Part shown: piece by piece, positions 470-27,342 of the stretch | How the letters are laid out: each line of letters starts with the position of its first letter | Numbering within the stretch: the first letter of the stretch is position 1 | Assembly (NCBI GenBank): GCA_022787565.1 | Contig: JALFVN010000075.1 | Location: 1 to 44,649 of the forward strand | DNA: 44,649 nt | Direction of reading: 5' to 3' | DNA from: Clostridiales bacterium | Lineage (GTDB): Bacteria; Bacillota; Clostridia; Oscillospirales; Oscillospiraceae | Made by a program: the position numbers and the translations under genes | The notes under the pieces: model-generated | What the model was told of the DNA's origin: nothing | Seen by the model: only the letters and a program-made list of their open reading frames with translations | Databases searched by the model: none

Positions 470-1702
470 ATGGCCTATAGTGAACTGATCAAAAACTTTG
501 AGAAAATCCGCGACTACATGAGGGAATTCTATATCTACGGGTTCAAAAGCCGCGAAGACTATACGAAAAAGAGTGCCCGAAGCTATGATGATGAGCGCCG
601 CCGTATAGAAAGCTGGCTCGGTGGATATATGGCTTTCCGTCATACCGGTGAAGGAAAGAATGTCTTCATCTCCGTGGATAATCGCAGCGTTATCTTCAAT
701 CCGCTGCACAACGCCTGGAAGGCAAAGAGTTTCACTGATAAAGATATCGTTCTGCATTTCTGCATCCTGGACATCCTTGCTGACGGCTCTGCGCAGGGCG
801 TGACCGAAATCTCCGATGGTGTTGCGGAGTATCTTTCTCACACCGACACTCCGTTTGAAGTCGATGAATCTACGGTTCGCAAGAAGCTGAAGGAGTACAC
901 GGAACTGGGTATTATCCGGAGCGAAAAAGCCGGACGCTCCCTTCTGTACCGCATTGCAGAAAGCAATGTGGACGTCCCTTCCTGGGAAGATGCCGCAGCG
1001 TACTACTCTGAGGAGGCTCCGTTCGGCGTGATTGGATCGTATCTATTAGATCGGCAGGACGAGGCACCGGAGCACTTCAGCTATAAGCATCACTATCTGC
1101 TCCACACCCTTGATACCCAGGTCTTATTTGACGCTCTGTGCGCCATGAAGGAAAAGCGCTGTGTGGATATTGTGAATTTCAGCATCCGCAAGGATGCTGA
1201 GCACGAGCACCGCGTGTATCCACTGCGCTTTTACATCAGCACACAGACCGGGCGGGAGTATCTCCTGGCTTATCATTACAAATTCCGCAAGCCCATGTTC
1301 TTCCGGCTGGATACGATCCGCTCCATCAAAGCCGGTCCGGTTGAGACTAAGCACGAAAAATACGAGGGCTTTGCCGTCAAGTTCGATGAAAAACTCTGGG
1401 GTGTTTCTACCGGCGGTGATTACAGCGTTGATCATGTGGAGCTCACCCTTCATGTGGAGGACAATGAAAGCTATATTATTGACCGTCTGGAGCGTGAGAA
1501 GCGACACGGGCGGATCGAGCCGATCGACAGTCATACATATAAATTCGTGGCGGACGTGTATGACGCCGGGGAGCTTTTGATGTGGGCACGGAGTTTTATA
1601 GGGCGGGTCGTGAAATTTGAAAGCGACAACAAATTTGCGGTCACCCGGTTTTACGACGATGTGCGGCGCATGGCGGAGATGTACGGAGGTGGGGAAGCAT
1701 GA
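470..1702 (+). CDS. WYL-domain transcriptional regulator, first of a pair
   Basis: This 410-residue protein has a winged-helix-like region at about residues 90-165 and a WYL domain at about 215-300. The WYL hallmark is visible near residues 249-283: Y-P-L-R-F-Y, then G-R-E-Y-L-L-A-Y and F-R-L-D-T-I. WYL domains sense ligands, often nucleic acids or nucleotides, in regulators of defence and DNA/RNA damage genes. A strong ribosome site (GAGGAGG) lies 7 bases before ATG 470. The gene overlaps the next WYL gene by 4 bases (ATGA), so the two are co-translated and may work as a heteromer. They lie directly upstream of the non-coding RNA block and the RNA-repair genes, so they are the best candidates for controlling that locus. 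This role is inferred from position; the WYL assignment is from sequence. Confidence 0.85.
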   Translation: MAYSELIKNFEKIRDYMREFYIYGFKSREDYTKKSARSYDDERRRIESWLGGYMAFRHTGEGKNVFISVDNRSVIFNPLHNAWKAKSFTDKDIVLHFCILDILADGSAQGVTEISDGVAEYLSHTDTPFEVDESTVRKKLKEYTELGIIRSEKAGRSLLYRIAESNVDVPSWEDAAAYYSEEAPFGVIGSYLLDRQDEAPEHFSYKHHYLLHTLDTQVLFDALCAMKEKRCVDIVNFSIRKDAEHEHRVYPLRFYISTQTGREYLLAYHYKFRKPMFFRLDTIRSIKAGPVETKHEKYEGFAVKFDEKLWGVSTGGDYSVDHVELTLHVEDNESYIIDRLEREKRHGRIEPIDSHTYKFVADVYDAGELLMWARSFIGRVVKFESDNKFAVTRFYDDVRRMAEMYGGGEA

Positions 1703-2613
1703 TCTTTTCCGAAATCTACGGCAGCTATTTCAAAGCTGTCTCTGCCATCCTGTCCAAGGCTGTCGATGGTGTGCTTACCGAGCGGGAGCTGACGCGAACT
1801 GTTCTGGAGAATGCTTTCGGGGAAAGTTTGGTCACAATCCCGGCCAAGCTGACAGACGGCAGCTGGCCGCTGATCACGAAGGATTACGGCACGCCGTTAC
1901 TGCATAAGCCCCAAATGCCATTGACCACGCTGGAAAAGCAATGGCTCAAGGCACTGCTGCTGGATCCCCGTGTCCGCCTGTTTGACCCCTCTGAGGAAGG
2001 GTTGGAGGATGTAGAACCGCTCTTTACTCCGGATCAGTTCGTGTACTTCGATCGCTATGCGGACGGGGATGATTACAGTGATCCCCAATATATCGAGCAC
2101 TTTCGCATGATTATCCGGGCCATGCATGAGAAGAGAAAGCTCCGCGTCCGATTCCATGGTCACCAGGGTAACAGACAGAGTTATATCTGTATTCCTTACC
2201 GGCTCGAGTATTCCTCCAAGGACGATAAATTCCGGCTCATTACCGGATTTCGCAACAAACCGCTGACGGTCAACCTTTCCCGGATAGACTCCGTACACAT
2301 TCTTGATCCATGGGAAGAAAATGAGTACAGTTTGCCGCGTGAACGGGAGAAAGCCCTTGTCATGGACCTCTACGATACGCGTAACGCATTGGAGCGGGCA
2401 ATGCTGCACTTCTCCGACTTGGAGAAAGAAACGGAGCGCATTGATGACCGGCGCTATCGGATCACACTTCATTACCGCCAGGGGGATGAGACGGAGATTC
2501 TGATCCGTATCCTCTCTTTTGGGCCGGTGCTGAAAGTGATTGAACCGGAGAGCATGGTCTCACAAATCCGGGAGCGTTTAGCAAAACAGACCGCTCTTTT
2601 GGCAGAAGAATAA
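1699..2613 (+). CDS. WYL-domain regulator, second of a pair
   Basis: A 304-residue WYL protein. The WYL core runs from about residue 149 to 200: R-V-R-F-H-G, then I-P-Y-R-L-E-Y-S, F-R-L-I-T-G-F and N-L-S-R-I. The first 100 residues are not recognisable as a canonical HTH, so DNA binding may rest mainly with the upstream partner. The start ATG overlaps the stop of the first WYL gene. It ends just before a strong intrinsic terminator, so the pair forms its own transcription unit. The fact that it is a distinct paralogue rather than a copy suggests a two-component sensor. No catalytic motif is visible. Confidence 0.8.
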   Translation: MIFSEIYGSYFKAVSAILSKAVDGVLTERELTRTVLENAFGESLVTIPAKLTDGSWPLITKDYGTPLLHKPQMPLTTLEKQWLKALLLDPRVRLFDPSEEGLEDVEPLFTPDQFVYFDRYADGDDYSDPQYIEHFRMIIRAMHEKRKLRVRFHGHQGNRQSYICIPYRLEYSSKDDKFRLITGFRNKPLTVNLSRIDSVHILDPWEENEYSLPREREKALVMDLYDTRNALERAMLHFSDLEKETERIDDRRYRITLHYRQGDETEILIRILSFGPVLKVIEPESMVSQIRERLAKQTALLAEE

Positions 2614-2622
2614 AGAAGATAC

Positions 2623-2664
2623 TTGCGAACTTTCCTCGAAAAAGGAGAGTTCGCAACTTTTTTT
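2623..2664 (+). terminator. Intrinsic terminator after the WYL pair
   Basis: A 14-base arm at 2623-2636 (TTGCGAACTTTCCT) faces 2643-2656 with one or two mismatches, and seven T follow at 2658-2664. This separates the WYL unit from the RNA block downstream. Confidence 0.85.
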
Positions 2665-2710
2665 CCATGATAAATTCTTCCACAGATGGTATTTTATGCT
2701 TGCAAGAAGA

Positions 2711-2773
2711 AAAGCACATACAGCAATGAAATGCATACGACTTCTAATCGTAAGGGCAAATCGAGTGTGCTTT
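2711..2773 (+). ncRNA. Y-RNA-like element A (Arg-TCT-like anticodon loop)
   Basis: A perfect 8-bp helix pairs 2711-2718 (AAAGCACA) with 2766-2773 (TGTGCTTT). Just inside the 5' strand is ACAGCA (2720-2725), seven bases after GAAA (2709-2712), the spacing shared with elements B, D and E. Inside lies a tRNA-like 5-bp stem with the loop CTTCTAA, a canonical Arg(TCT) anticodon loop. A short D-arm-like hairpin precedes it. Only 13 bases separate the anticodon stem from the closing helix, so no normal T arm fits and no CCA follows. It is not a normal tRNA. Its position beside a Ro60-like gene suggests a Y-RNA-type ncRNA; that role is inferred. Confidence 0.5.
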
Positions 2774-2777
2774 GCGA

Positions 2778-2831
2778 AAGATGCCAACAGCAACAACACC
2801 GTCATTATTTCTGATGAAAGCACGGCATCTT
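2778..2831 (+). ncRNA. Y-RNA-like element B
   Basis: A perfect 8-bp helix pairs 2778-2785 (AAGATGCC) with 2824-2831 (GGCATCTT). GAAA at 2776-2779 and ACAGCA at 2787-2792 are again exactly seven bases apart. The helix sequence differs fully from that of element A, so the two strands have changed together. A short hairpin (CGTCA/TGATG) sits inside. Element B begins 4 bases after element A, which points to one transcript or a processed tandem array. No T arm or CCA is seen. Confidence 0.5.
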
Positions 2832-2844
2832 GTTCATAAATGGG

Positions 2845-2926
2845 AACGCCGCCTTGGCCCGCCGGAAATCCGGTATTTTCTCTGGATGACCGGCTCCGAC
2901 GTTTGTCGTTCGCCCTGCGCGGCGTT
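2845..2926 (+). other. GC-rich stem-bounded element C, lacking the shared motif
   Basis: An 8-bp perfect helix pairs 2845-2852 (AACGCCGC) with 2919-2926 (GCGGCGTT), and small hairpins (CCGGAAATCCGG; CGACGTTTGTCG) lie inside. The AA...TT helix ends match the other elements, and it falls in the same head-to-tail series, but GAAA-N7-ACAGCA is absent. It may be a diverged member or simply a structured linker. Confidence 0.3.
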
Positions 2927-2935
2927 TTCGATAGA

Positions 2936-3046
2936 AAGACACAGACAGCATTCTTTCCAGATCCATTAGCTCCAGCTGCGGGGCGTCCGGTTCAGGGCCG
3001 GGAGGTCGCGGGTTGGACTCCCGCATGAATCCTGAAACTGTGTCTT
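2936..3046 (+). ncRNA. Y-RNA-like element D with tRNA-like domain (CAG anticodon)
   Basis: An outer 9-bp helix pairs 2936-2944 (AAGACACAG) with 3038-3046 (CTGTGTCTT). GAAA (2934-2937) and ACAGCA (2945-2950) keep the seven-base spacing. Inside, 2960-3031 folds like a tRNA. The acceptor GATCCAT/ATGAATC pairs at 6 of 7 positions, the D stem is GCTC/GGGC, and a 5-bp anticodon stem carries the loop TTCAGGG with CAG at 2993-2995. The T stem is GCGGG/CCCGC. The T loop TTGGACT departs from the normal TTCRANN, no CCA follows, and a CAG (Leu) tRNA would need a long variable arm that is missing. The outer helix plus tRNA mimic is the layout of bacterial Y RNAs of the YrlA type. Confidence 0.6.
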
Positions 3047-3048
3047 GA

Positions 3049-3141
3049 AAGGCACGAACAGCAAATTCGAATAGCTGAATGGTTTAGCAGCCGGCTCATA
3101 ACCGGCGATTGCGGGTTCGAATCCCGTTTCGTTAGTGCCTT
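3049..3141 (+). ncRNA. Y-RNA-like element E with tRNA-like domain (CAT anticodon)
   Basis: An outer helix pairs 3049-3055 (AAGGCAC) with 3135-3141 (GTGCCTT). GAAA (3047-3050) and ACAGCA (3058-3063) have the shared spacing. The inner tRNA-like fold has a D arm (GCTG/TAGC), a perfect anticodon stem GCCGG/CCGGC with loop CTCATAA (CAT at 3097-3099), and a T arm with the canonical loop TTCGAAT. Only 4 of 7 acceptor pairs form and no CCA follows, so a functional Met tRNA is unlikely. A T-rich run (3142-3158) follows the outer helix, which could end the transcript here. It is the best-formed tRNA mimic of the series and lies 184 bases before the Ro60-like gene. Confidence 0.65.
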
Positions 3142-3223
3142 GTTTTTTTGCTTTTTCACTACACCTTGCGGCTGAAGTGGAGAAAAAATTGACCGCATTC
3201 CAAGAGAATGAGAACAGCAAGTA

Positions 3224-3324: not shown

Positions 3325-4776
3325 GTGCTGGAAGTCCTGAAGAAAACTGCAAACAAAACCTATACCGAAAACGGTGCAGTCACGTATCGCACCAGCGGGA
3401 AGGACTGCCTGGATCTTTTCGCCACCATTGGCGCACTGCGCCGCGCAGACGATCAGGCTATCTGCAACCGCTTTCTGAAAGCGTATGCGGAGAACCCCGA
3501 TCTTGCCATGAAGATCCTGTTCTACGCCCGCGATGTGCGCGGCGGCCTCGGTGAGCGCCGCGTATTCCGGAGCATCCTCACCTGGCTTGCCTCCAACGAA
3601 AAGGGTTCTGTTGTGAAAAACCTCCCCTTTATTGCGGAATATGGCCGCTGGGATGACGTCCTCGTTCTGCTGAAGACCCCGTGCCATAAGGAAGCCCTGG
3701 CTCTGCTGAAAGAGCAGTTCCAGGCGGATCTTGCTGCGCTGGAAGACAGCGGGGATATCTCCCTGCTTGGCAAGTGGCTTCCCTCTGTGAACGCCTCCAA
3801 CCAGGATACGGTTATGCTTGCGAAGATGATCGCCAAGTCCTTCGGTCTGTCAGACCGTGACTACCGCAAGGCGCTGGTGAAGCTTCGCGCGCGTATCCGG
3901 ATCATCGAGAACAACCTGCGTGAGAAGGATTATACCTTCGATTACGCCAAGCAGCCCTCCAAGGCCATGTTCAAATACCGCAAGGCCTTCCTTCGCAACG
4001 ATGGAGACCGCTACGGCGCTTTCATGGAGAAGGTGGACCGTGGTGAGGCAAAGCTTCACACTGGAACGCTGATGCCCTATGAGCTCGTTGAGCGGGCCTA
4101 CAATTGCTCCGAGGAAGAGCGTCGGTCCCTGGACGTCACCTGGCGTCAGCTGGAGGACTTCACCACGGATGAAAATGCGCTCGTTGTGGCGGACGGCTCC
4201 AGCTCCATGTACTGGGGCAGCAAGCCGATGCCCGCGTCGGTCGCGCAGTCCCTTGCGATTTACTTCGCAGAACATAATAAAGGAGAATTCCACAATCACT
4301 TCCTTACTTTCTCGATGACGCCCCGACTGGTGGAGCTCAAAGGTAATGATTTTGTGGAGAAGGTGCGCTACTGCAGAACCTTCAACGAATGCGCCAACAC
4401 TAATCTGGAGGCGGTATTCGATCTGATTCTGCGGGCAGCGGTAGAGAATCATGTTCCGCAGGCTGAGATGCCCGCAAAGCTGTATATCATCTCCGACATG
4501 GAGTTTGATTATTGCGTGAAGAACTCGTCCATGACGAATTTCGAAAACGCGAAAGCCAGCTATGCGGCGGCCGGCTACAAGCTCCCGGACCTTGTGTTCT
4601 GGAACGTAGACAGCCGCAACGAGCAGCAGCCTGTGAAAGAGAATGATCGCGGTGTTGCGTTGGTCTCCGGCTGCAGCCCCCGAATCTTCTCCATGATCAT
4701 GGATGGCGAACTGAATCCGTATGCGTTCATGCTGAGCGTGGTCGACACGGAGCGTTATGCCCCCATCGCTGCGTAA
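3325..4776 (+). CDS. DUF2828 family protein with vWA domain (Ro60-like architecture)
   Basis: This 483-residue protein starts at GTG 3325, 8 bases after AAAGGAGG. The first two thirds are helical and carry family signatures such as K-I-L-F-Y-A-R-D-V-R-G-G-L-G-E-R-R, E-Y-G-R-W-D-D and F-D-Y-A-K-Q-P-S-K-A. The C-terminal part is a von Willebrand A domain with the metal site D-G-S-S-S (D290) and a second acidic motif S-D-M-E-F-D (D391). A helical-repeat domain followed by vWA is the layout of Ro60/TROVE proteins, which bind misfolded RNAs and Y RNAs. The relation of DUF2828 to TROVE is inferred here from layout and context. Candidate Y-like RNAs lie upstream and an RNA ligase downstream, supporting a role in binding damaged RNA. 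The length is normal for the family and the reading frame is intact. Confidence 0.85.
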   Translation: MLEVLKKTANKTYTENGAVTYRTSGKDCLDLFATIGALRRADDQAICNRFLKAYAENPDLAMKILFYARDVRGGLGERRVFRSILTWLASNEKGSVVKNLPFIAEYGRWDDVLVLLKTPCHKEALALLKEQFQADLAALEDSGDISLLGKWLPSVNASNQDTVMLAKMIAKSFGLSDRDYRKALVKLRARIRIIENNLREKDYTFDYAKQPSKAMFKYRKAFLRNDGDRYGAFMEKVDRGEAKLHTGTLMPYELVERAYNCSEEERRSLDVTWRQLEDFTTDENALVVADGSSSMYWGSKPMPASVAQSLAIYFAEHNKGEFHNHFLTFSMTPRLVELKGNDFVEKVRYCRTFNECANTNLEAVFDLILRAAVENHVPQAEMPAKLYIISDMEFDYCVKNSSMTNFENAKASYAAAGYKLPDLVFWNVDSRNEQQPVKENDRGVALVSGCSPRIFSMIMDGELNPYAFMLSVVDTERYAPIAA

Positions 4777-4871: not shown

Positions 4872-6074
4872 ATGATTGAAATACAAGGACTTCACAACAC
4901 TGCCCTTTGTTATACGCCCGCTCTGGAGCCTACGGCTGAAATGCAAATCAAGACCGTATGTGACCAGGAGGCCTTTGCAGGCTGCAAGATTCGAATCATG
5001 CCGGACGTCCATGCCGGAAAGGGCTGTACAATCGGTACGACCATGACCATCCGGGATAAGATCGTCCCCGGCATGGTTGGCGTGGATATCGGCTGCGGTA
5101 TGGAGACCGTGCATCTGGCCGAGAAGGAGATTGACTTTGCCGCCCTTGATGCATTGATCCGGAAAGAGATCCCCTGCGGTCAGAATATTCGCAAGGAAGA
5201 GCATCCCCTGATCGGTGGAATTAATCTTTATCAGCTCCGCTGTGCTCCCTATGTTTCCATCGAGCGGGCAAAGCGCAGCATCGGCACCTTGGGTGGCGGC
5301 AATCACTTTATCGAAGTCGATCGCGGAGAGAACGGTGATTTGTATCTCGTTATCCATTCTGGCAGCCGTCACCTGGGAACTCAGGTCTGCAAGTATTACC
5401 AGGATCAGGGCCGGTTCGCCATGTGGGGCGGCGCTCGTCACCAAATTGATGAACTGATTGCCGAGTACCGTGCCGCAGGCCGTTGGCAGGAGATCCAGAG
5501 CGCAATCAACGAGCTGCGCAAAGAGCATCCCATCAACATCCCCAAGGATCTCGCTTATGTAGAGGGAAAGCTTTTTGACGACTACATCCACGATATGCGC
5601 ATCACCCAGCATTTTGCCGTTCTTAACCGGAAGGCCATGACGGATGTAATCCTGCGCGGCATGGGGCTGACGAAGGTCGAGGAGTTTACGACCATTCACA
5701 ACTATATTGATACGGAGAAGATGATTCTTCGCAAGGGTTCTGTCTCCGCCGAAGCAGGAGAAAAGCTGCTGATTCCTATCAACATGCGCGATGGCAGCCT
5801 GATCTGTATCGGTAAGGGCAACGAGGAGTGGAACTGCTCCGCTCCCCACGGCGCTGGCCGCATTATGAGCCGCAAGCAGGCCTTTGCCCAACTCTCAATG
5901 GACGAATATACCGCCGAGATGGAGGGGATCTGGTCCTCCTGCGTCGTACAGGATACCCTCGATGAATCTCCCATGGCCTACAAGCCCATCGATGAGATTG
6001 TATCAGAAATCGGCCCCACTGCCGAGATCGTTGAGCGTATTCGCCCGGTTTATAACTTCAAGGCCGCTGAATAA
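4872..6074 (+). CDS. rtcB: RtcB-family RNA ligase
   Basis: RtcB joins 2',3'-cyclic phosphate or 3'-phosphate RNA ends to 5'-OH ends, using GTP and Mn2+. This 400-residue protein has the full active site: D45 and H47 in M-P-D-V-H-A-G-K-G, D72 and Cys75 in V-D-I-G-C-G-M, H145 in G-G-N-H-F, H162 in H-S-G-S-R-H, and the guanylated His at H326 in S-A-P-H-G-A-G-R. It is of the shorter RtcB type. Start ATG 4872 follows GGAAGG at about 10 bases. Cyclic-phosphate/5'-OH breaks are what anticodon nucleases leave, so the neighbouring tRNA array and nucleotidyltransferase fit a tRNA repair role. No RtcA cyclase or archease is in the window. Confidence 0.93.
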   Translation: MIEIQGLHNTALCYTPALEPTAEMQIKTVCDQEAFAGCKIRIMPDVHAGKGCTIGTTMTIRDKIVPGMVGVDIGCGMETVHLAEKEIDFAALDALIRKEIPCGQNIRKEEHPLIGGINLYQLRCAPYVSIERAKRSIGTLGGGNHFIEVDRGENGDLYLVIHSGSRHLGTQVCKYYQDQGRFAMWGGARHQIDELIAEYRAAGRWQEIQSAINELRKEHPINIPKDLAYVEGKLFDDYIHDMRITQHFAVLNRKAMTDVILRGMGLTKVEEFTTIHNYIDTEKMILRKGSVSAEAGEKLLIPINMRDGSLICIGKGNEEWNCSAPHGAGRIMSRKQAFAQLSMDEYTAEMEGIWSSCVVQDTLDESPMAYKPIDEIVSEIGPTAEIVERIRPVYNFKAAE

Positions 6075-6113: not shown

Positions 6114-6509
6114 ATGCTGGAAGCGCTGCAGGCAGAACCTCAGTCAGACGCCGGGAAAACAATCGGCAACATCTTAGGCTACCTGTTTGCCAAATCGGTG
6201 GAAATGACTGTCAACGAGGCCAAAGAGAACCCTACGTTTGAAACCAGGCTGACAGCATCGTACAGTCCGCATGATGCTCTCCAGGGCATACTGCGCTCTA
6301 CGTTGCCTCCTGAGCAACACGCTACCCTTGAAGATGTGATGGAACTGGCACAACAGTTTGGAAAAGACATCTTCGTCTTCATGGAGATGTCGGATAAAAC
6401 TGACGAGGACTTTCCTGAATTGTTTACTCAAGCAGCCATCGTTGTTCAGAAGATAGGGCAAATGTACGCAACTAACGGTTTCGAAGAAGCATGTAAAATC
6501 CGACCGTAA
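6114..6509 (+). CDS. Unknown 131-residue protein between rtcB and rlaP
   Basis: I do not recognise this family. The protein is acidic and mostly helical by composition, with no membrane segment. ATG 6114 has no clear ribosome site. The same frame runs upstream for 13 codons to ATG 6075, directly after the rtcB stop and with AAGG before it. That extension would add a Cys-His-Cys-Lys-Asn-Asn segment, but it contains an in-frame TGA as its third codon (6081-6083). Either the true start is 6114, or the 5' end has been damaged, or TGA is read through. Its place inside the operon suggests an accessory part of the repair system; no function can be assigned. Confidence 0.55.
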   Translation: MLEALQAEPQSDAGKTIGNILGYLFAKSVEMTVNEAKENPTFETRLTASYSPHDALQGILRSTLPPEQHATLEDVMELAQQFGKDIFVFMEMSDKTDEDFPELFTQAAIVVQKIGQMYATNGFEEACKIRP

Positions 6510-6544: not shown

Positions 6545-7297
6545 ATGAGGGAAACGATCCTGAAAAAGCTGAATGAAATTGAAAAGAAGGAGAACGCAAA
6601 GATCCTGTTGGCGGTCGAGTCCGGCAGCCGCGCCTGGGGCTTTGCCTCCCCCGACAGCGACTACGACGTTCGTTTTATCTATGTGCGGCCCAAGGAGGAT
6701 TATCTTCGTCTGGAAAAGACCAGGGACGTGATCGAGCTGCCCATCGAAGGCGAACTGGATATCAATGGCTGGGATCTGGATAAAACCCTGCGCCTTCTCC
6801 GCGCATCAAATCCAACCCTGTTCGAGTGGTTCTCTTCGCCAATCGTGTACCGGGAAACCGCATTTGCGCAGGAGTTCCGCAGTATCATGCAGCGGTACTT
6901 CTCCTCTAAGCGCGGACTGAGCCACTATCTCAGCATGGCCAGCAGCAACTATCGCGAGTATCTGAAAGGCGATACGGTAAAGGCCAAAAAGTACTTTTAT
7001 GTGCTGCGTCCGGTCCTGGCCTGCCGGTGGATCCTGGATAAGGGGACGCCTCCACCCATGCTGTTTTCGGAGCTGATGGATGCGGAGCGCGACGCTGCCA
7101 TTCTGCCGGATGTGAACAGGCTGCTCGATTTGAAGATGAATGCCCCAGAGATCAAAACGATCCCCAAAATCGAAAGCATCAACCATTACCTCGACAGCAG
7201 CATGGAAGAAGTACGATCCCGTATCGTTCAGCTGCCGGAAGACGCAAGTCATGGGTGGGAGGAATTAGATCAACTCTTCCTCTCACAGCTTGAGTAA
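6545..7297 (+). CDS. RlaP-like nucleotidyltransferase (DNA polymerase beta superfamily)
   Basis: This 250-residue protein carries the pol-beta nucleotidyltransferase signature G27-S28-R29-A-W-G-F followed by D37-S-D39-Y-D41, the metal-binding acid pair, and then Y-F-Y-V-L-R-P-x-L-A-C-R-W with a P-P-M-L-F helix. This is the pattern of Pfam family RlaP, named for its association with RNA-repair ligases. Its proposed job is adding nucleotides to cut RNA ends before sealing; the exact reaction is not known to me. GGAGGAGG lies 8 bases before ATG 6545. It closes the rtcB cluster and is followed by an XRE regulator and tRNA genes. All expected motifs are present and the length is normal. Confidence 0.88.
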   Translation: MRETILKKLNEIEKKENAKILLAVESGSRAWGFASPDSDYDVRFIYVRPKEDYLRLEKTRDVIELPIEGELDINGWDLDKTLRLLRASNPTLFEWFSSPIVYRETAFAQEFRSIMQRYFSSKRGLSHYLSMASSNYREYLKGDTVKAKKYFYVLRPVLACRWILDKGTPPPMLFSELMDAERDAAILPDVNRLLDLKMNAPEIKTIPKIESINHYLDSSMEEVRSRIVQLPEDASHGWEELDQLFLSQLE

Positions 7298-7935: not shown

Positions 7936-8012
7936 GGTCCCTTCGACTAACTGGTTAGGTCGCCGCTCTTTCAAGGCGGTAATGCTCGGTTCAAATCCGG
8001 CAGGGATCACCA
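7936..8012 (+). tRNA. tRNA-Glu (anticodon TTC)
   Basis: The acceptor GGTCCCT/AGGGATC pairs with one G-T, the anticodon stem is CCGCT/GGCGG with loop CTTTCAA, and CCA is encoded at 8010-8012. First of eleven tightly packed tRNA genes. The outer T-stem pair is mismatched. Confidence 0.88.
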
Positions 8013-8015
8013 TAT

Positions 8016-8089
8016 ACCGGATTGGTGTAACGGCAGCACGCCTGACTCTGACTCAGGAAGTCGTGGTTCAAATCCATGATCCGGTGCCA
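8016..8089 (+). tRNA. tRNA-Gln (anticodon CTG)
   Basis: The acceptor ACCGGAT/ATCCGGT is perfect. The anticodon stem CCTGA/TCAGG has loop CTCTGAC, and CCA is encoded. It reads only CAG; no TTG companion is present in the array. Confidence 0.88.
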
Positions 8090-8095
8090 TGATAC

Positions 8096-8172
8096 AGCCC
8101 CGTAGTGCAGATGGCTAACACGCCTGACTGTCTATCAGGAGATCGCGGGTTCGAGCCCCGTCGGGGTTGCCA
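8096..8172 (+). tRNA. tRNA-Asp (anticodon GTC)
   Basis: The acceptor AGCCCCG/CGGGGTT pairs with one G-T, the anticodon loop is CTGTCTA on a CCTGA/TCAGG stem, and CCA is encoded. GTC anticodons normally carry queuosine, a mark used by some anticodon nucleases. Confidence 0.88.
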
Positions 8173-8175
8173 TAC

Positions 8176-8252
8176 GGCCCCTTAGTCTAATCGGCCAGGA
8201 CGCAGGACTCTCAATCCTGAAATGCCGGGTTCAAGTCCCGCAGGGGTCACCA
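8176..8252 (+). tRNA. tRNA-Glu (anticodon CTC)
   Basis: The acceptor GGCCCCT/AGGGGTC holds, the anticodon stem CAGGA/TCCTG has loop CTCTCAA, and CCA is encoded. Second Glu isoacceptor of the array, reading GAG. The outer T-stem pair is mismatched. Confidence 0.87.
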
Positions 8253-8256
8253 CTAT

Positions 8257-8341
8257 GCCTGCCTGGTGGAATTGGGATACACGTCCGGCTTAAGACCGGG
8301 CGCCGCAAGGATTGGGGGTTCGACTCCCGCTCTGTGCACCA
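8257..8341 (+). tRNA. tRNA-Leu (anticodon TAA), degenerate acceptor
   Basis: The anticodon stem TCCGG/CCGGG with loop CTTAAGA, the leucine-type D arm TGGTGGAATTGG and an extended variable region identify it, and CCA is encoded. The acceptor strands GCCTGCC and TCTGTGC pair at only the first two positions plus G-T pairs, and the T stem has a mismatch, so function is doubtful. Confidence 0.7.
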
Positions 8342-8346
8342 CATAT

Positions 8347-8422
8347 ACGTTCTTAGCTCAGTTGGTAGAGCAGCGGTCTTTTAAACCGCAGGTCGCGGGT
8401 TCGAGCCCCGCAGGGCGTACCA
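8347..8422 (+). tRNA. tRNA-Lys (anticodon TTT)
   Basis: The acceptor ACGTTCT/AGGGCGT pairs with two G-T pairs. The anticodon stem GCGGT/ACCGC carries loop CTTTTAA, and CCA is encoded. Lys tRNA is the classic target of PrrC-type anticodon nucleases. Confidence 0.9.
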
Positions 8423-8425
8423 TAC

Positions 8426-8501
8426 GCGTTCTTAGCTCAGTCGGTAGAGCAGCGGATTCTTAATCCGAAGGTCGCGGGTTCGATCCCCTCAAGGCGCACC
8501 A
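8426..8501 (+). tRNA. tRNA-Lys (anticodon CTT)
   Basis: The acceptor GCGTTCT/AAGGCGC has one C-A mismatch, the anticodon loop is TTCTTAA, and CCA is encoded. It resembles the preceding Lys gene over much of its length, so it probably arose by duplication. Confidence 0.87.
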
Positions 8502-8504
8502 TAT

Positions 8505-8592
8505 GCACGAATGGCGGAACTGGAATACGCGCCAGACTAAGGATCTGGTGCCCGCTATGGGCTTGTGAGTTCGGCTCTCACTTCGTGCACCA
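8505..8592 (+). tRNA. tRNA-Leu (anticodon AAG)
   Basis: The acceptor GCACGAA/TTCGTGC is perfect. The anticodon stem CCAGA/TCTGG has loop CTAAGGA, a long variable arm with a GCCC/GGGC stem is present, and CCA is encoded. A34 in a Leu tRNA is uncommon in bacteria. The T loop TTCGGCT has G where A58 is nearly universal. Confidence 0.85.
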
Positions 8593-8598
8593 TTCATA

Positions 8599-8675
8599 GT
8601 GTGAGTAGCTCAGATGGTTAGAGCGTCGGTTTGTGGCACCGAATGTCGGCGGTTCGAATCCGCTCTCACACCCCA
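8599..8675 (+). tRNA. tRNA-His (anticodon GTG)
   Basis: The acceptor GTGTGAG/CTCACAC is perfect, the anticodon loop is TTGTGGC, the discriminator is C as in His tRNAs, and CCA is encoded. The base before the acceptor is A, so the usual encoded G-1 needed by HisRS is absent. Confidence 0.87.
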
Positions 8676-8678
8676 TAC

Positions 8679-8754
8679 GGGCTCTTAGCTCAGTTGGTAG
8701 AGCGGCAGACTGAAGATCTGCGCGTCCCAGGTTCGATTCCTGGAGAGCCCACCA
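8679..8754 (+). tRNA. tRNA-Phe (anticodon GAA)
   Basis: The acceptor GGGCTCT/AGAGCCC is perfect, the anticodon stem GCAGA/TCTGC has loop CTGAAGA, and CCA is encoded. Confidence 0.9.
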
Positions 8755-8759
8755 AATAC

Positions 8760-8847
8760 GGGAGAATGCCTGAGTCTGGTCAATAGGAGCGGTCCGTAAA
8801 ACCGTCGGTTTCGGCCTGCGTTGGTTCAAATCCAACTTCTCCCACCA
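8760..8847 (+). tRNA. tRNA-Tyr (anticodon GTA)
   Basis: The acceptor GGGAGAA/TTCTCCC is perfect, the anticodon loop is CCGTAAA, the long variable arm is typical of Tyr, and CCA is encoded. Last gene of the array; a terminator follows. Confidence 0.9.
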
Positions 8848-24958: not shown

Positions 24959-25813
24959 GTGGAGTGGATGAAATTGGTCGGAGACTCTATTCAGTACATT
25001 GAGAATCATTTATTGGATGACATTTCCGTTGAAGATATTGCCAGGCATATCGGTATATCGTCCTTTTATTACCAAAAAGGCTTTTCTATGCTGTGCGGCT
25101 TCACGGTTACTGAATACATTCGTAACCGCCGGCTTGCATTGGCGGGAAATGAGATCATCGGTACTGATCACACTATCATTGATATTGCTTTGAAATACGG
25201 ATACGATTCTCCCGACAGTTTCACAAAAGCATTTACAAGATTTCATGGCTCTACACCGACTGCCGTCCGAAAGGATAATGTCATGCTGAAATCCTTTGCT
25301 CCGTTAAAAATCAAGGTGCATTTAGAAGGGGGATATCTAATGGATTACAGAATTGAAAAAAAGGGCGAGTTTACCGTTATCGCCAACGCAAAAACATTTG
25401 CCTACGAGGGTGCAAAAGACGTTATTCCACTGTTCTGGCAGGAACACTATGCTTCGGGCAAGGGACAGACGGTGTGCGGAGAATTCGGCATTAACATTGA
25501 TGAAACGATGGGGACGGATTCTTTTGAATATTTGATTGCTGACACCTACAAAGGACAAGAGGTTCCCGAAGGTTTCGTTTTGCGTACCATTCCTTCGTTT
25601 GATTGGGCAATTTTCCCTTGCAAGGGTGCTATGCCGAATGCATTGCAGGATGTCAATACAAAAATCTTCACAGAATGGCTGCCAGCCATCCGTGAATATG
25701 AATTTGCGGCGGGGTATTGTGTTGAGATGTATGATGACCCCCAAAAATATGCCAAGGGAACGATGGACGAGAGTTACTATTGTGAGATTTGGATTCCTGT
25801 AAAGAGAAAATAA
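24959..25813 (+). CDS. AraC-family regulator with GyrI-like effector domain
   Basis: The 284-residue protein has two AraC helix-turn-helix motifs (residues about 10-105: S-V-E-D-I-A-R-H-I-G-I-S-S-F-Y-Y-Q-K-G-F and I-I-D-I-A-L-K-Y-G-Y-D-S-P-D-S-F-T-K-A-F) and a GyrI/SOUL-like ligand-binding domain (about 125-284, ending Y-Y-C-E-I-W-I-P-V). This layout matches Rob/MarA-like multidrug-responsive regulators of Firmicutes. The start is GTG 24959, with AAAGGAG about 9 bases upstream. Lower GC than its neighbours suggests it came by transfer. It converges with a MATE exporter gene, a plausible target, but no operator is evident. Confidence 0.9.
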   Translation: MEWMKLVGDSIQYIENHLLDDISVEDIARHIGISSFYYQKGFSMLCGFTVTEYIRNRRLALAGNEIIGTDHTIIDIALKYGYDSPDSFTKAFTRFHGSTPTAVRKDNVMLKSFAPLKIKVHLEGGYLMDYRIEKKGEFTVIANAKTFAYEGAKDVIPLFWQEHYASGKGQTVCGEFGINIDETMGTDSFEYLIADTYKGQEVPEGFVLRTIPSFDWAIFPCKGAMPNALQDVNTKIFTEWLPAIREYEFAAGYCVEMYDDPQKYAKGTMDESYYCEIWIPVKRK

Positions 25814-25989: not shown

Positions 25990-27342
25990 TCAAACGGACA
26001 GTCTCTTTTTTCTGAACCGGAGATAATAGACCGCAAAAGCCAGGGAAGTGAGACACCAGGTAACGGGATAACTCATAATGACCGTCCGGATGGTATGCCA
26101 TTGGGGCACCAGGGCAAATACCCACAGTATGCGGGCAAAGCATATCCCAACCGCGGTTATTATTGTTGGTACAAGGGTGTCCCCCATTCCCCGCAGGCTG
26201 CCGCTGAGGACCTCCACCGGCACATACAGCCAATACCAGGGCGCGATGCACAGCATCATCTTTGCCGACATTTCCAGTATTCTTGCATCATCGGTAAACA
26301 GAGCAAAAAAGTATCTTCCTCCCAGAACAAATATCGTTCCGGTCACCACCGTCACCCCTGCGGCAATGGCAAGTCCCAGTTTTATGCTGCTCTTTACCCG
26401 GTCAATACGCTGCGCGCCGTAGTTCTGCCCCACAAATGTCATCACGGCAACGCCGAAAGCGCTCATCACCAGCCAGGTCAGCGCATCCAGCTTCCCCAGG
26501 GCCACCCAGGAGGCCACGGCATCTGTGCCGAAGCCGTTCACCGAAGCGGTAATAATCATATTCGACACGGCATAAAGCACGGACTGGAGTCCGGTTGGCA
26601 GCCCGAGGCGCACTGTGCGCCGCAGCATACGCCTGTCGGCCCTGAGCAGTTTTCGGTTCAGCCGGTAGCTCTCCCGGCTTTTTGCCAGGAAGGAGCAAAC
26701 CAGTACCGCGCTGATCAGCTGGGCCAGAGAAGTAGCGACCGCCACACCGGCAACCCCCATCCGAAATCCGCAGACCAGCAGCAGGTCCAAAACTACATTC
26801 ACAAGGCAGCACAGGATAAGGAAGCCCAGCGGGTGCTTTGCGTCACCGGCCGCCCGGAGAATGGCGGAGCCCATATTGTAGATCATCCCGGGGATCATGG
26901 ACAGATACACCAGCCGCAGATACAGTACGGAGTCCTGCATGGTCTCCGCCGGGGTATCCATGAGCCGCAGAAGCCGGGGCGCCGTTGCTATCCCCAGAAC
27001 GGTCATGATCCCGCCGCATACCGCGGCCAGAATCATCGCCGTATGCACCGAGCGGGAGACGTCCTCTTCATCTCTTGCTCCGATAAACTGGGCAATGATC
27101 ACCGTGGCCCCTGAGGATACGCCGGTAAAAAAGCCGATGATCAGATTCAGGATCTGGGCAGAGGAGCCGCCCACCGCCGCCAGAGCCTCCGTCCCCACAA
27201 AGCGGCCTACGATCATGGTATCCACGGTATTATACAGCTGCTGAAACAGGCTGCCCAGCAGCACCGGGAAGAAGAAGGCAAGAAGCTGCTTCCAGATGAC
27301 GCCTTCGGTTATCTCATTAATCTCTCTCTTCATGCTTTGCAT
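25990..27342 (-). CDS. MATE-family multidrug efflux protein
   Basis: A 450-residue membrane protein with twelve predicted spans in two halves. MATE signatures include L-L-G-S-L-F-Q-Q-L-Y-N-T-V-D-T-M-I-V-G at residues about 28-46 and G-L-P-T-G-L-Q in the second half. The family exports cationic compounds in exchange for Na+ or H+. AAGGAG lies about 12 bases before ATG 27342 (an in-frame ATG three codons later is closer to normal usage). It is 18 bases after the glycosyltransferase gene, so the two form an operon read from the promoter at 28812. Alternatively it may flip a lipid-linked product of that enzyme. Confidence 0.92.
   Translation of the reverse strand: MQSMKREINEITEGVIWKQLLAFFFPVLLGSLFQQLYNTVDTMIVGRFVGTEALAAVGGSSAQILNLIIGFFTGVSSGATVIIAQFIGARDEEDVSRSVHTAMILAAVCGGIMTVLGIATAPRLLRLMDTPAETMQDSVLYLRLVYLSMIPGMIYNMGSAILRAAGDAKHPLGFLILCCLVNVVLDLLLVCGFRMGVAGVAVATSLAQLISAVLVCSFLAKSRESYRLNRKLLRADRRMLRRTVRLGLPTGLQSVLYAVSNMIITASVNGFGTDAVASWVALGKLDALTWLVMSAFGVAVMTFVGQNYGAQRIDRVKSSIKLGLAIAAGVTVVTGTIFVLGGRYFFALFTDDARILEMSAKMMLCIAPWYWLYVPVEVLSGSLRGMGDTLVPTIITAVGICFARILWVFALVPQWHTIRTVIMSYPVTWCLTSLAFAVYYLRFRKKRLSV

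What the first reader, a model, noticed from the sequence alone, without database searches (positions are those of the whole stretch)
2709..3141. Four tandem RNA elements with an invariant GAAA-N7-ACAGCA motif and covarying closing helices
Seen directly: GAAA and ACAGCA are separated by exactly seven bases at 2709, 2776, 2934 and 3047. Those seven bases begin a 7-9 bp helix whose 3' strand lies 54-111 bases on. The helices are AAAGCACA/TGTGCTTT, AAGATGCC/GGCATCTT, AAGACACAG/CTGTGTCTT and AAGGCAC/GTGCCTT. Different sequences with full pairing are strong covariation evidence for RNA. The conserved ACAGCA just inside the helix looks like a protein-binding site, plausibly for the Ro60-like protein.
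Basis: partly seen in the sequence, partly recalled or inferred. Interest (0 to 1): 0.92.

Follow-up and report, generated by a model that had tools for sequence, protein, structure and literature searches.

The report
tRNA-mimic RNA array for Ro-like protein
Next to a bacterial relative of the Ro60 RNA-binding protein lies a row of small RNAs that share one docking handle but carry different pieces of tRNA, which looks like a set of tRNA look-alikes working with an RNA-repair operon.

Summary
Each element is a closing helix of about 8 bp, then ACAGCA on its 5' side, then a variable interior. A covariance model finds elements in 75 of 80 further DUF2828 loci (169 hits, all on the DUF2828 strand). 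In 291 genomes of the class, 11 of 12 with DUF2828 have hits, against 5 of 279 without; the twelfth has ACAGCU versions. Phages carry them too. DUF2828 is a full-length profile homologue of Ro60/TROVE, but TROVE-linked Y RNAs use a different handle. I read this as a Y-RNA-like RNP of the DUF2828 branch: the handle docks the Ro-like protein, and the tRNA-mimic modules engage tRNA-directed enzymes, most likely as decoys or tethers in tRNA damage and repair (RtcB, RlaP and a second tRNA set lie nearby). The RNA class is close to certain; binding and function are inferred. New variant of a known kind, as far as the papers I could reach show.

The parts
2709..2774 (+). Element 1: arm 2711-2717 (AAAGCAC) with 2767-2773, ACAGCA 2720-2725; interior holds an anticodon-arm mimic 2736-2752 (TACGA CTTCTAA TCGTA, anticodon UCU)
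2776..2832 (+). Element 2: arm 2778-2785 with 2824-2831, ACAGCA 2787-2792; interior a short hairpin, class unclear
2934..3047 (+). Element 3: arm 2936-2944 with 3038-3046, ACAGCA 2945-2950; interior a tRNA-Leu(CAG)-like body 2960-3032 with 6 of 7 acceptor-type pairs and no CCA
3047..3142 (+). Element 4: arm 3049-3055 with 3135-3141, ACAGCA 3058-3063; interior a tRNA-Met(CAU)-like body 3065-3135 with a shortened acceptor stem and no CCA; the handle is followed by a run of T
3325..4776 (+). DUF2828/DUF7788 protein (483 aa), profile homologue of Ro60/TROVE
   Evidence: Pfam; profile comparison
4872..6074 (+). RtcB RNA ligase
6114..6509 (+). 131-aa protein, no family found
6545..7297 (+). RlaP nucleotidyltransferase of RNA repair
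470..1702 (+). WYL-domain protein 1
1699..2613 (+). WYL/WCX-domain protein 2
2623..2664 (+). Terminator-like hairpin between the WYL genes and the array
   Evidence: 2 sites found, 1.1 expected in shuffles; this one has 14 pairs
7936..8847 (+). Array of 11 tRNA genes; 8 of 11 anticodons duplicate tRNAs found elsewhere in this genome

Best explanation
The four elements are small structured RNAs of a Y-RNA-like class that belongs to the DUF2828 branch of the Ro60 family. SHOWN by sequence: a common handle (helix of about 8 bp, flanked by A before and G after, then 0-2 nt and ACAGCA on the 5' side) carries exchangeable modules, many of them tRNA-derived, travels with DUF2828 genes in bacteria and phages, and lies on their strand. 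The tRNA-derived modules are of two complementary kinds: canonical-order tRNA bodies or lone arms that keep the anticodon arm but run into the handle where a tRNA would have its CCA end, and permuted T-acceptor-D modules that lack the anticodon arm. INFERRED: the handle docks the DUF2828 protein, and the module is recognised by enzymes that act on tRNA. INFERRED and less sure (about 0.4): the anticodon-bearing modules are decoys or reloadable bait for anticodon nucleases, since without a CCA end they should not be charged or used in translation, yet they offer the cleavage site. RtcB and RlaP would mend cut RNAs, the neighbouring tRNA set would replace lost tRNAs, and the WYL proteins would control the locus.
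For: Handle: 156 of 214 ACAGCA sites within 2.2 kb upstream of DUF2828 have an exact 7-bp arm, 10 of 320 elsewhere in the same loci; arms swapped between sites give 23.9 on average, 35 at most in 500 shuffles. The 57 same-composition hexamers other than ACAGCA and its two neighbours by one base (AACAGC, CAGCAA) pair in 11-24% of sites, ACAGCA in 43%. Association. Modules: of 152 elements 50 hold a 5-bp/7-nt anticodon-type arm (shuffled mean 1.9, max 6) and 52 a T arm (0.29, max 3); 12 of 35 elements with a T arm that ARAGORN does not call pass my permuted test, against 1.7 on average and 5 at most when the part after the T arm is shuffled. Consensus folds with compensatory changes in 15 of 21 and 19 of 23 pairs (the rows had been picked for such arms). 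Of 21 ARAGORN-called bodies none has CCA at its 3' end. Protein: DUF2828 against TROVE profiles, probability 99.4, E 5e-21, 406 columns. Context: RtcB, RlaP, WYL; a WYL gene upstream in 34 of 64 loci with room, RtcB starting 1.3-3.5 kb after the DUF2828 start in 26 of 64; second tRNA set. Print: YrlA is described with a basal stem for the Ro protein and a D, T and acceptor-arm tRNA-like domain (passages of PMC8394870); Hughes et al. suggest that YrlA could competitively inhibit an anticodon nuclease (passages of PMC7790460).
Against: No binding, expression or decoy activity was tested. 72 of 152 interiors are unassigned, which a pure tRNA-decoy reading does not explain. Hughes et al. detected no fragments of YrlA, which argues against cleavable bait, though not against competitive inhibition. 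The window's mimics (UCU, CAG, CAU) do not overlap its own second tRNA set. RtcB is not next door in 38 of 64 loci by my tblastn test. No defence-system model matched beyond WYL and two very weak Cas hits. The last base of the motif varies (ACAGCU, ACAGCC). Four phage loci (L106, L107, L109, L112) and one plasmid locus (L113, E 0.28) gave no good model hit, though L112 has an ACAGCA site with a strong helix. A canonical-order tRNA-like body also shows by eye in a TROVE-type array (L192), so such modules may not be special to DUF2828. Single-sequence folds are only mildly better than shuffles.
Confidence: 0.6

Rival explanations
1. Tethers for RNA decay: each RNA hooks the DUF2828 protein to a nuclease or other tRNA-binding enzyme through its tRNA-like module, as YrlA is reported to do for PNPase, so that damaged tRNA or rRNA is destroyed rather than spared.
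For: Architecture as YrlA in the PMC8394870 passages; permuted T-acceptor-D modules match that description; DUF2828 is a Ro60 homologue.
Against: Lone anticodon arms and canonical tRNA bodies are not in the YrlA description I could read; why one locus would need up to eight elements is unclear.
Confidence: 0.25
2. Damage sensors: cleavage of the anticodon-type modules, or their release from DUF2828, is what the WYL proteins read, so the array works as a fuse that induces the repair genes.
For: A WYL gene lies upstream in 34 of 64 loci; in Salmonella tRNA fragments are said to activate the rtc operon (passage of PMC8394870).
Against: No WYL hit in 30 of 64 loci; no ligand data.
Confidence: 0.12
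3. Cis-acting leader elements that control translation or termination ahead of the DUF2828 gene.
For: Most elements lie upstream of the gene; the last handle in the window is followed by a run of T.
Against: Elements also lie downstream of the gene (L042, L048, L068, L088; phages L100, L104, L105) and among tRNA genes; many interiors are tRNA mimics.
Confidence: 0.04
4. Decaying tRNA pseudogenes or a selfish repeat without function.
For: Modules resemble tRNA genes; numbers differ between close relatives.
Against: Compensatory change in the handle and arms; hits in genus and class sit at DUF2828 genes but for five genomes.
Confidence: 0.02

Closest known systems
Bacterial Y RNAs / YrlA, partners of TROVE-type Ro60 (Rsr)
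   Same: Ends pair into a basal stem said to hold the Ro protein; tRNA-like module; encoded beside a Ro60-family gene, in Rhizobium L189 with RtcB and RtcR; tandem copies occur (L188, L189, L192, by eye).
   Different: Different handle: ACAGCA inside the helix here; at TROVE genes other repeats, such as GCGAAUG...UACAUCG-like ones in L188 and L189 (by eye); R1 finds none at 12 TROVE loci at E<=10. Here also lone anticodon arms. The protein is matched by DUF2828, not by the TROVE Pfam model.
tRNA
   Same: D, anticodon and T arms with tRNA-like loops; the Rfam tRNA model matches elements 3 and 4; 5-7 acceptor-type pairs in 21 ARAGORN-called bodies.
   Different: 0 of 21 bodies have CCA at the 3' end; they run into the handle instead.
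Highly transcribed non-coding regions of Listeria phage CKA15 (PMC12282133; passages, section 8 and part 1 of the discussion seen)
   Same: Three ACAGCA sites with helices lie directly upstream of CKA15_055, the DUF2828 homologue, behind a TTGACA-17-TATCAT promoter seen by eye; the authors suggest Y RNAs for three very highly transcribed regions within 2 kb upstream.
   Different: R1 supports only one of the three at E 0.0033, another at 0.35. The one region the authors place (26,236-26,727) has no ACAGCA; whether the element region is one of the other two is not stated in what I read.

Membership tests
Bacterial Y RNA (YrlA type) | Encoded beside a Ro60-family gene | tested here: met
   DUF2828 adjacent, full-length profile homologue of TROVE; PF05731 itself gives no match in this genome
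Bacterial Y RNA (YrlA type) | Basal stem formed by the 5' and 3' ends | tested here: met
   RNA ends themselves are unknown
Bacterial Y RNA (YrlA type) | tRNA-like domain with D, T and acceptor arms | tested here: inconclusive
   12 of 152 elements pass my permuted test, none of them in the window; elements 3 and 4 hold canonical-order tRNA bodies instead
Bacterial Y RNA (YrlA type) | Same Ro-binding sequence as TROVE-linked Y RNAs | tested here: not met
   no R1 match at 12 TROVE loci; other repeats seen there by eye
Bacterial Y RNA (YrlA type) | Tethers Ro protein to PNPase | not testable with these tools
   needs biochemistry
Ro60/TROVE protein | Homology over the whole length, vWA included | tested here: met
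   weak with narrow profiles (3%, vWA part only), strong with diverse ones (99.4%, 406 columns)
Ro60/TROVE protein | Match to Pfam TROVE (PF05731) | tested here: not met
Ro60/TROVE protein | Ring fold | not tested
tRNA | CCA end after the acceptor stem | tested here: not met
   0 of 21; other tRNA genes of this genome do encode CCA
Rfam families other than tRNA | Match at gathering score | tested here: not met
   window and 14 related loci; sub-threshold hits

The most novel reading that the evidence does not exclude
The array is a genome-encoded library of anticodon decoys: a Ro-like protein displays tRNA bodies without CCA and lone anticodon arms of chosen specificities to soak up anticodon nucleases, while RtcB/RlaP mend and the second tRNA set replaces what is lost. 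Phages and bacteria would share this system on the two sides of tRNA warfare, each changing its modules to fit the nucleases it meets.
Probability: 0.35. Interest if true: 0.92.

Novelty: new variant of a known kind. Interest (0 to 1): 0.78.

Why it matters
It gives DUF2828 proteins, whose homologues occur in 682 of 50,697 phage records and in many gut Clostridia, a candidate RNA partner that can be recognised by sequence, and it shows Ro-type RNAs carrying exchangeable tRNA parts, bare anticodon arms included. What bacterial Ro RNPs do is an open question; here the modules name the tRNAs whose enzymes should be checked first.

Tried and rejected
Cis-leader, pseudogene and selfish-repeat readings were considered and disfavoured (see rivals). 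Rfam gave only tRNA at gathering score; two sub-threshold hits (Plastid-ycf2 on the other strand, Xoo5) were taken as chance. PDB profile searches found no clear relative of DUF2828 by sequence: one hit at E 0.83, then five up to E 10, best an unrelated-looking conserved protein at E 0.029 and two TROVE chains at E 1.5. The first DUF2828-TROVE comparison was too narrow and failed. A mobile-element reading found no support in the 10 further ORFs of the window that I scanned, which include ATP synthase and PFOR genes. My first neighbour count covered only 62 of 80 loci and was redone. One search was a mistyped fold request and is not used. Rows dropped: 4 of 156 elements before the module counts (no G after the helix, or interior of 140 or more); 5 of 55 short elements, by hand and without a rule, before the model alignment; 49 of 129 relatives were not returned by the scan.

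Full report
OBSERVATION. The pattern GAAA-N7-ACAGCA is present at exactly the four stated positions, against 0.08 expected, and the four closing helices pair as described. Folded alone, the elements are only mildly more stable than shuffles (z -1.4 to -2.2). Pfam gives the genes around them as WYL, WYL, [array], DUF2828/DUF7788, RtcB, an unknown 131-aa protein, and RlaP; 11 tRNA genes follow at 7936-8847.

THE FAMILY. I searched species-representative genomes with an alignment of six DUF2828 proteins; the best 80 of 129 relatives were returned. Within 2.2 kb upstream of the DUF2828 start, 156 of 214 ACAGCA sites have an exact 7-bp arm within 250 nt; elsewhere in the same loci 10 of 320 do; arms swapped between sites give 23.9 on average and 35 at most in 500 shuffles; 70 of 81 loci (80 plus the window) have at least one. 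The consensus is A-A-A-R-R-Y-R-C-N-N-ACAGCA-A, and the helix is followed by G in 152 of 156. The G of GAAA is not conserved. Of the 60 hexamers with this composition, ACAGCA pairs in 43% of sites, the two that overlap it by five bases in 26% and 37%, and the other 57 in 11-24%.

COVARIATION AND MODEL. In 50 short elements (50 of 55 that I had) the seven selected pairs pair by selection; they show AU/GC and CG/UA exchange. The next pair, not used in selection, is paired in 33 of 48 with six pair types, and the one after that in 19 of 48. On the whole alignment four of the five measures exceed all 500 shuffles; the number of further pair types does not (16 against 19.7). The model R1 gives 169 hits at E<=0.01 in the 80 loci, all on the strand of DUF2828, in 75 of 80 loci by my reading of the list (up to 48 of these hits are training rows). 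Of the other five loci, L049, L083 and L084 have hits at E<0.01 in a smaller search, L033 has 50 nt upstream only, and L041 has none. Sixteen phage and plasmid loci, absent from training and picked by me for spread from 682 phage and 4 plasmid records, give hits at E<=0.05 in 11 (10 of 14 phage loci, 1 of 2 plasmid loci). All 56 hits are on the + strand.

SPECIFICITY. In the window's genome R1 reports only the array at E<=10 (3 of 4 elements; 150 of 493 first-look candidates scored). In 61 genomes of the genus, DUF2828 matches 8 and R1 hits 6, all among those 8; all 18 hits lie beside the gene on its strand. Of the other two, G039 has a 39-aa fragment only, and G019 (215 nt upstream on its contig) shows one imperfect element by eye. 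In 291 genomes of the class, DUF2828 passes its cut-off in 12 and R1 hits 16: 11 of the 12 and 5 of the 279 others. Of the five, G348 has two good hits on a 3.9-kb contig in which I found no DUF2828, and four have single hits at E 0.0017-0.0084, about what 291 genomes at E 0.01 would give by chance. Both large searches used stricter filters and scored 86 and 18 candidates a genome, and some of these genomes may be ones that training rows came from, which I did not check. The twelfth, G328, carries two ACAGCU handles just upstream of a divergent DUF2828 (27% identity). A Staphylococcus phage (L108) has ACAGCC/ACAGCU versions.

MODULES. Of 152 elements, 50 hold a 5-bp stem with a 7-nt anticodon-type loop (shuffled mean 1.9, max 6 of 200 shuffles), 52 a T arm (0.29, max 3), and 48 some other 5-bp/7-nt hairpin (26.0, max 39). 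My sorting: 21 canonical tRNA bodies by ARAGORN, 24 lone anticodon arms, 9 anticodon plus T arm, 14 T arm only, 12 permuted, 72 unassigned. Of 19 distinct lone anticodon arms, 15 have C32 and A37-A38, and N36 is U in 12, A in 5, G in 2 (the filter itself demanded C or U at 32, U33 and a purine at 37). The permuted test passes 12 of 35 elements that have a T arm and no ARAGORN call, against 1.7 on average and 5 at most with the part after the T arm shuffled. RNAalifold folds 27 canonical-type elements (the 21 plus 6 that I added by eye) into handle, D, anticodon and T arms; 15 of 21 pairs show changes on both sides, and 98.2% of cells pair against 81.8% in shuffles. Fourteen permuted ones (12 plus 2 from phages, by eye) fold into handle, T arm, acceptor hairpin and D arm; 19 of 23 pairs show changes on both sides. 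No structure was given to the program, but the rows had been picked for such arms, so the variety of pairs counts here and not the pairing itself. The acceptor helix is not in the consensus of the 27, yet the 21 ARAGORN-called bodies keep 5-7 acceptor-type pairs each (ARAGORN looks for them); 0 of 21 have CCA at the 3' end. So one kind of module keeps the anticodon arm and ends in the handle instead of CCA, and the other keeps the acceptor side and lacks the anticodon arm.

PROTEIN. Narrow profiles matched DUF2828 and TROVE only in the vWA part (3%). With 24 diverse DUF2828 and 9 diverse TROVE proteins the match is 99.4%, E 5e-21, over 406 columns. The CKA15 authors report D. radiodurans Rsr as the best HHPred match of a DUF2828 homologue (PMC12282133). 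The fold was not tested because structure prediction was off.

CONTRAST WITH TROVE Y RNAs. R1 finds nothing at 12 TROVE loci at E<=10. In six of the eight phage and plasmid loci among them I read seven non-coding gaps. By eye, four loci (L185, L188, L189, L192) hold tandem repeats of other handles, such as GCGAAUG...UACAUCG-like ones, some with T-arm sequences and one, in L192, with what looks like a canonical-order tRNA body. Tandem Y-RNA arrays and tRNA mimicry are therefore not unique to DUF2828; the ACAGCA handle is what differs. I saw lone anticodon arms only in DUF2828 arrays but did not search TROVE ones for them.

CONTEXT. A WYL gene lies upstream in 34 of 64 loci with room, and RtcB starts 1.3-3.5 kb after the DUF2828 start in 26 of 64. 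ARAGORN finds tRNA genes outside my exact elements within 3 kb upstream in 18 of 80 loci (some may be modules of elements that the exact test missed), and the phage loci viewed often hold tRNA arrays. In this genome 8 of the 11 anticodons of the downstream array duplicate tRNAs found elsewhere. In Listeria phage CKA15 three ACAGCA sites with helices lie directly upstream of CKA15_055 (record about 25,385-25,543); R1 supports one at E 0.0033. The paper reports three very highly transcribed non-coding regions within 2 kb upstream of that gene but, in what I read, places only one, which lacks the handle.

MECHANISM. Shown: structure, modules, association, homology. Inferred: docking of the Ro-like protein on the handle (likely); engagement of tRNA-directed enzymes by the modules (likely); decoy against anticodon nucleases (about 0.4), against tether for decay (0.25) or sensor (0.12). 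Anticodon-bearing modules without CCA favour anticodon-directed enzymes; the permuted ones favour enzymes of the acceptor side and fit the YrlA description. That known anticodon nucleases include PrrC is recalled. The 72 unassigned interiors remain unexplained.

NOVELTY. No held paper has DUF2828 together with RtcB; four name DUF2828 (listing only) and are on plants; the listings showed none that I could recognise as describing such arrays. Burroughs and Aravind 2016 and Chen et al. 2014 are not held, and Sim et al. 2020 was not looked up, so part of this, the phage handle above all, may be in print. I therefore rate it a new variant of a known kind.

Noticed in passing
window 7936-8847: Eleven tRNA genes, 8 with anticodons that duplicate tRNAs elsewhere in the genome; looks like a spare set.
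   Followed up: partly
window 2833-2933: About 100 nt between elements 2 and 3, with a GC-rich hairpin; the near relative L018 has about 24 nt there.
   Followed up: no
L185, about 4120-4560 (crAss001): By eye, tRNA-like halves separated by what looks like a TROVE-type handle in the anticodon region, at two places.
   Followed up: no
L192 1228-2417 (Rhizobium phage RHph_Y65): By eye about eight tandem repeats beginning GTTGCGA before the TROVE gene.
   Followed up: no
L191 15-2415 (Haloarcula halophila plasmid): Sixteen ARAGORN tRNA genes directly before a TROVE gene in an archaeon.
   Followed up: no
L102 4477-4968 (Listeria phage CKA15, record 26,236-26,727): Non-coding region; the paper gives about 67% of phage transcripts at 40 min to two ORFs in it; it has no ACAGCA handle.
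   Followed up: no
L181 2942-3210: Genome G348 has an array on a 3.9-kb contig with no DUF2828 found.
   Followed up: partly
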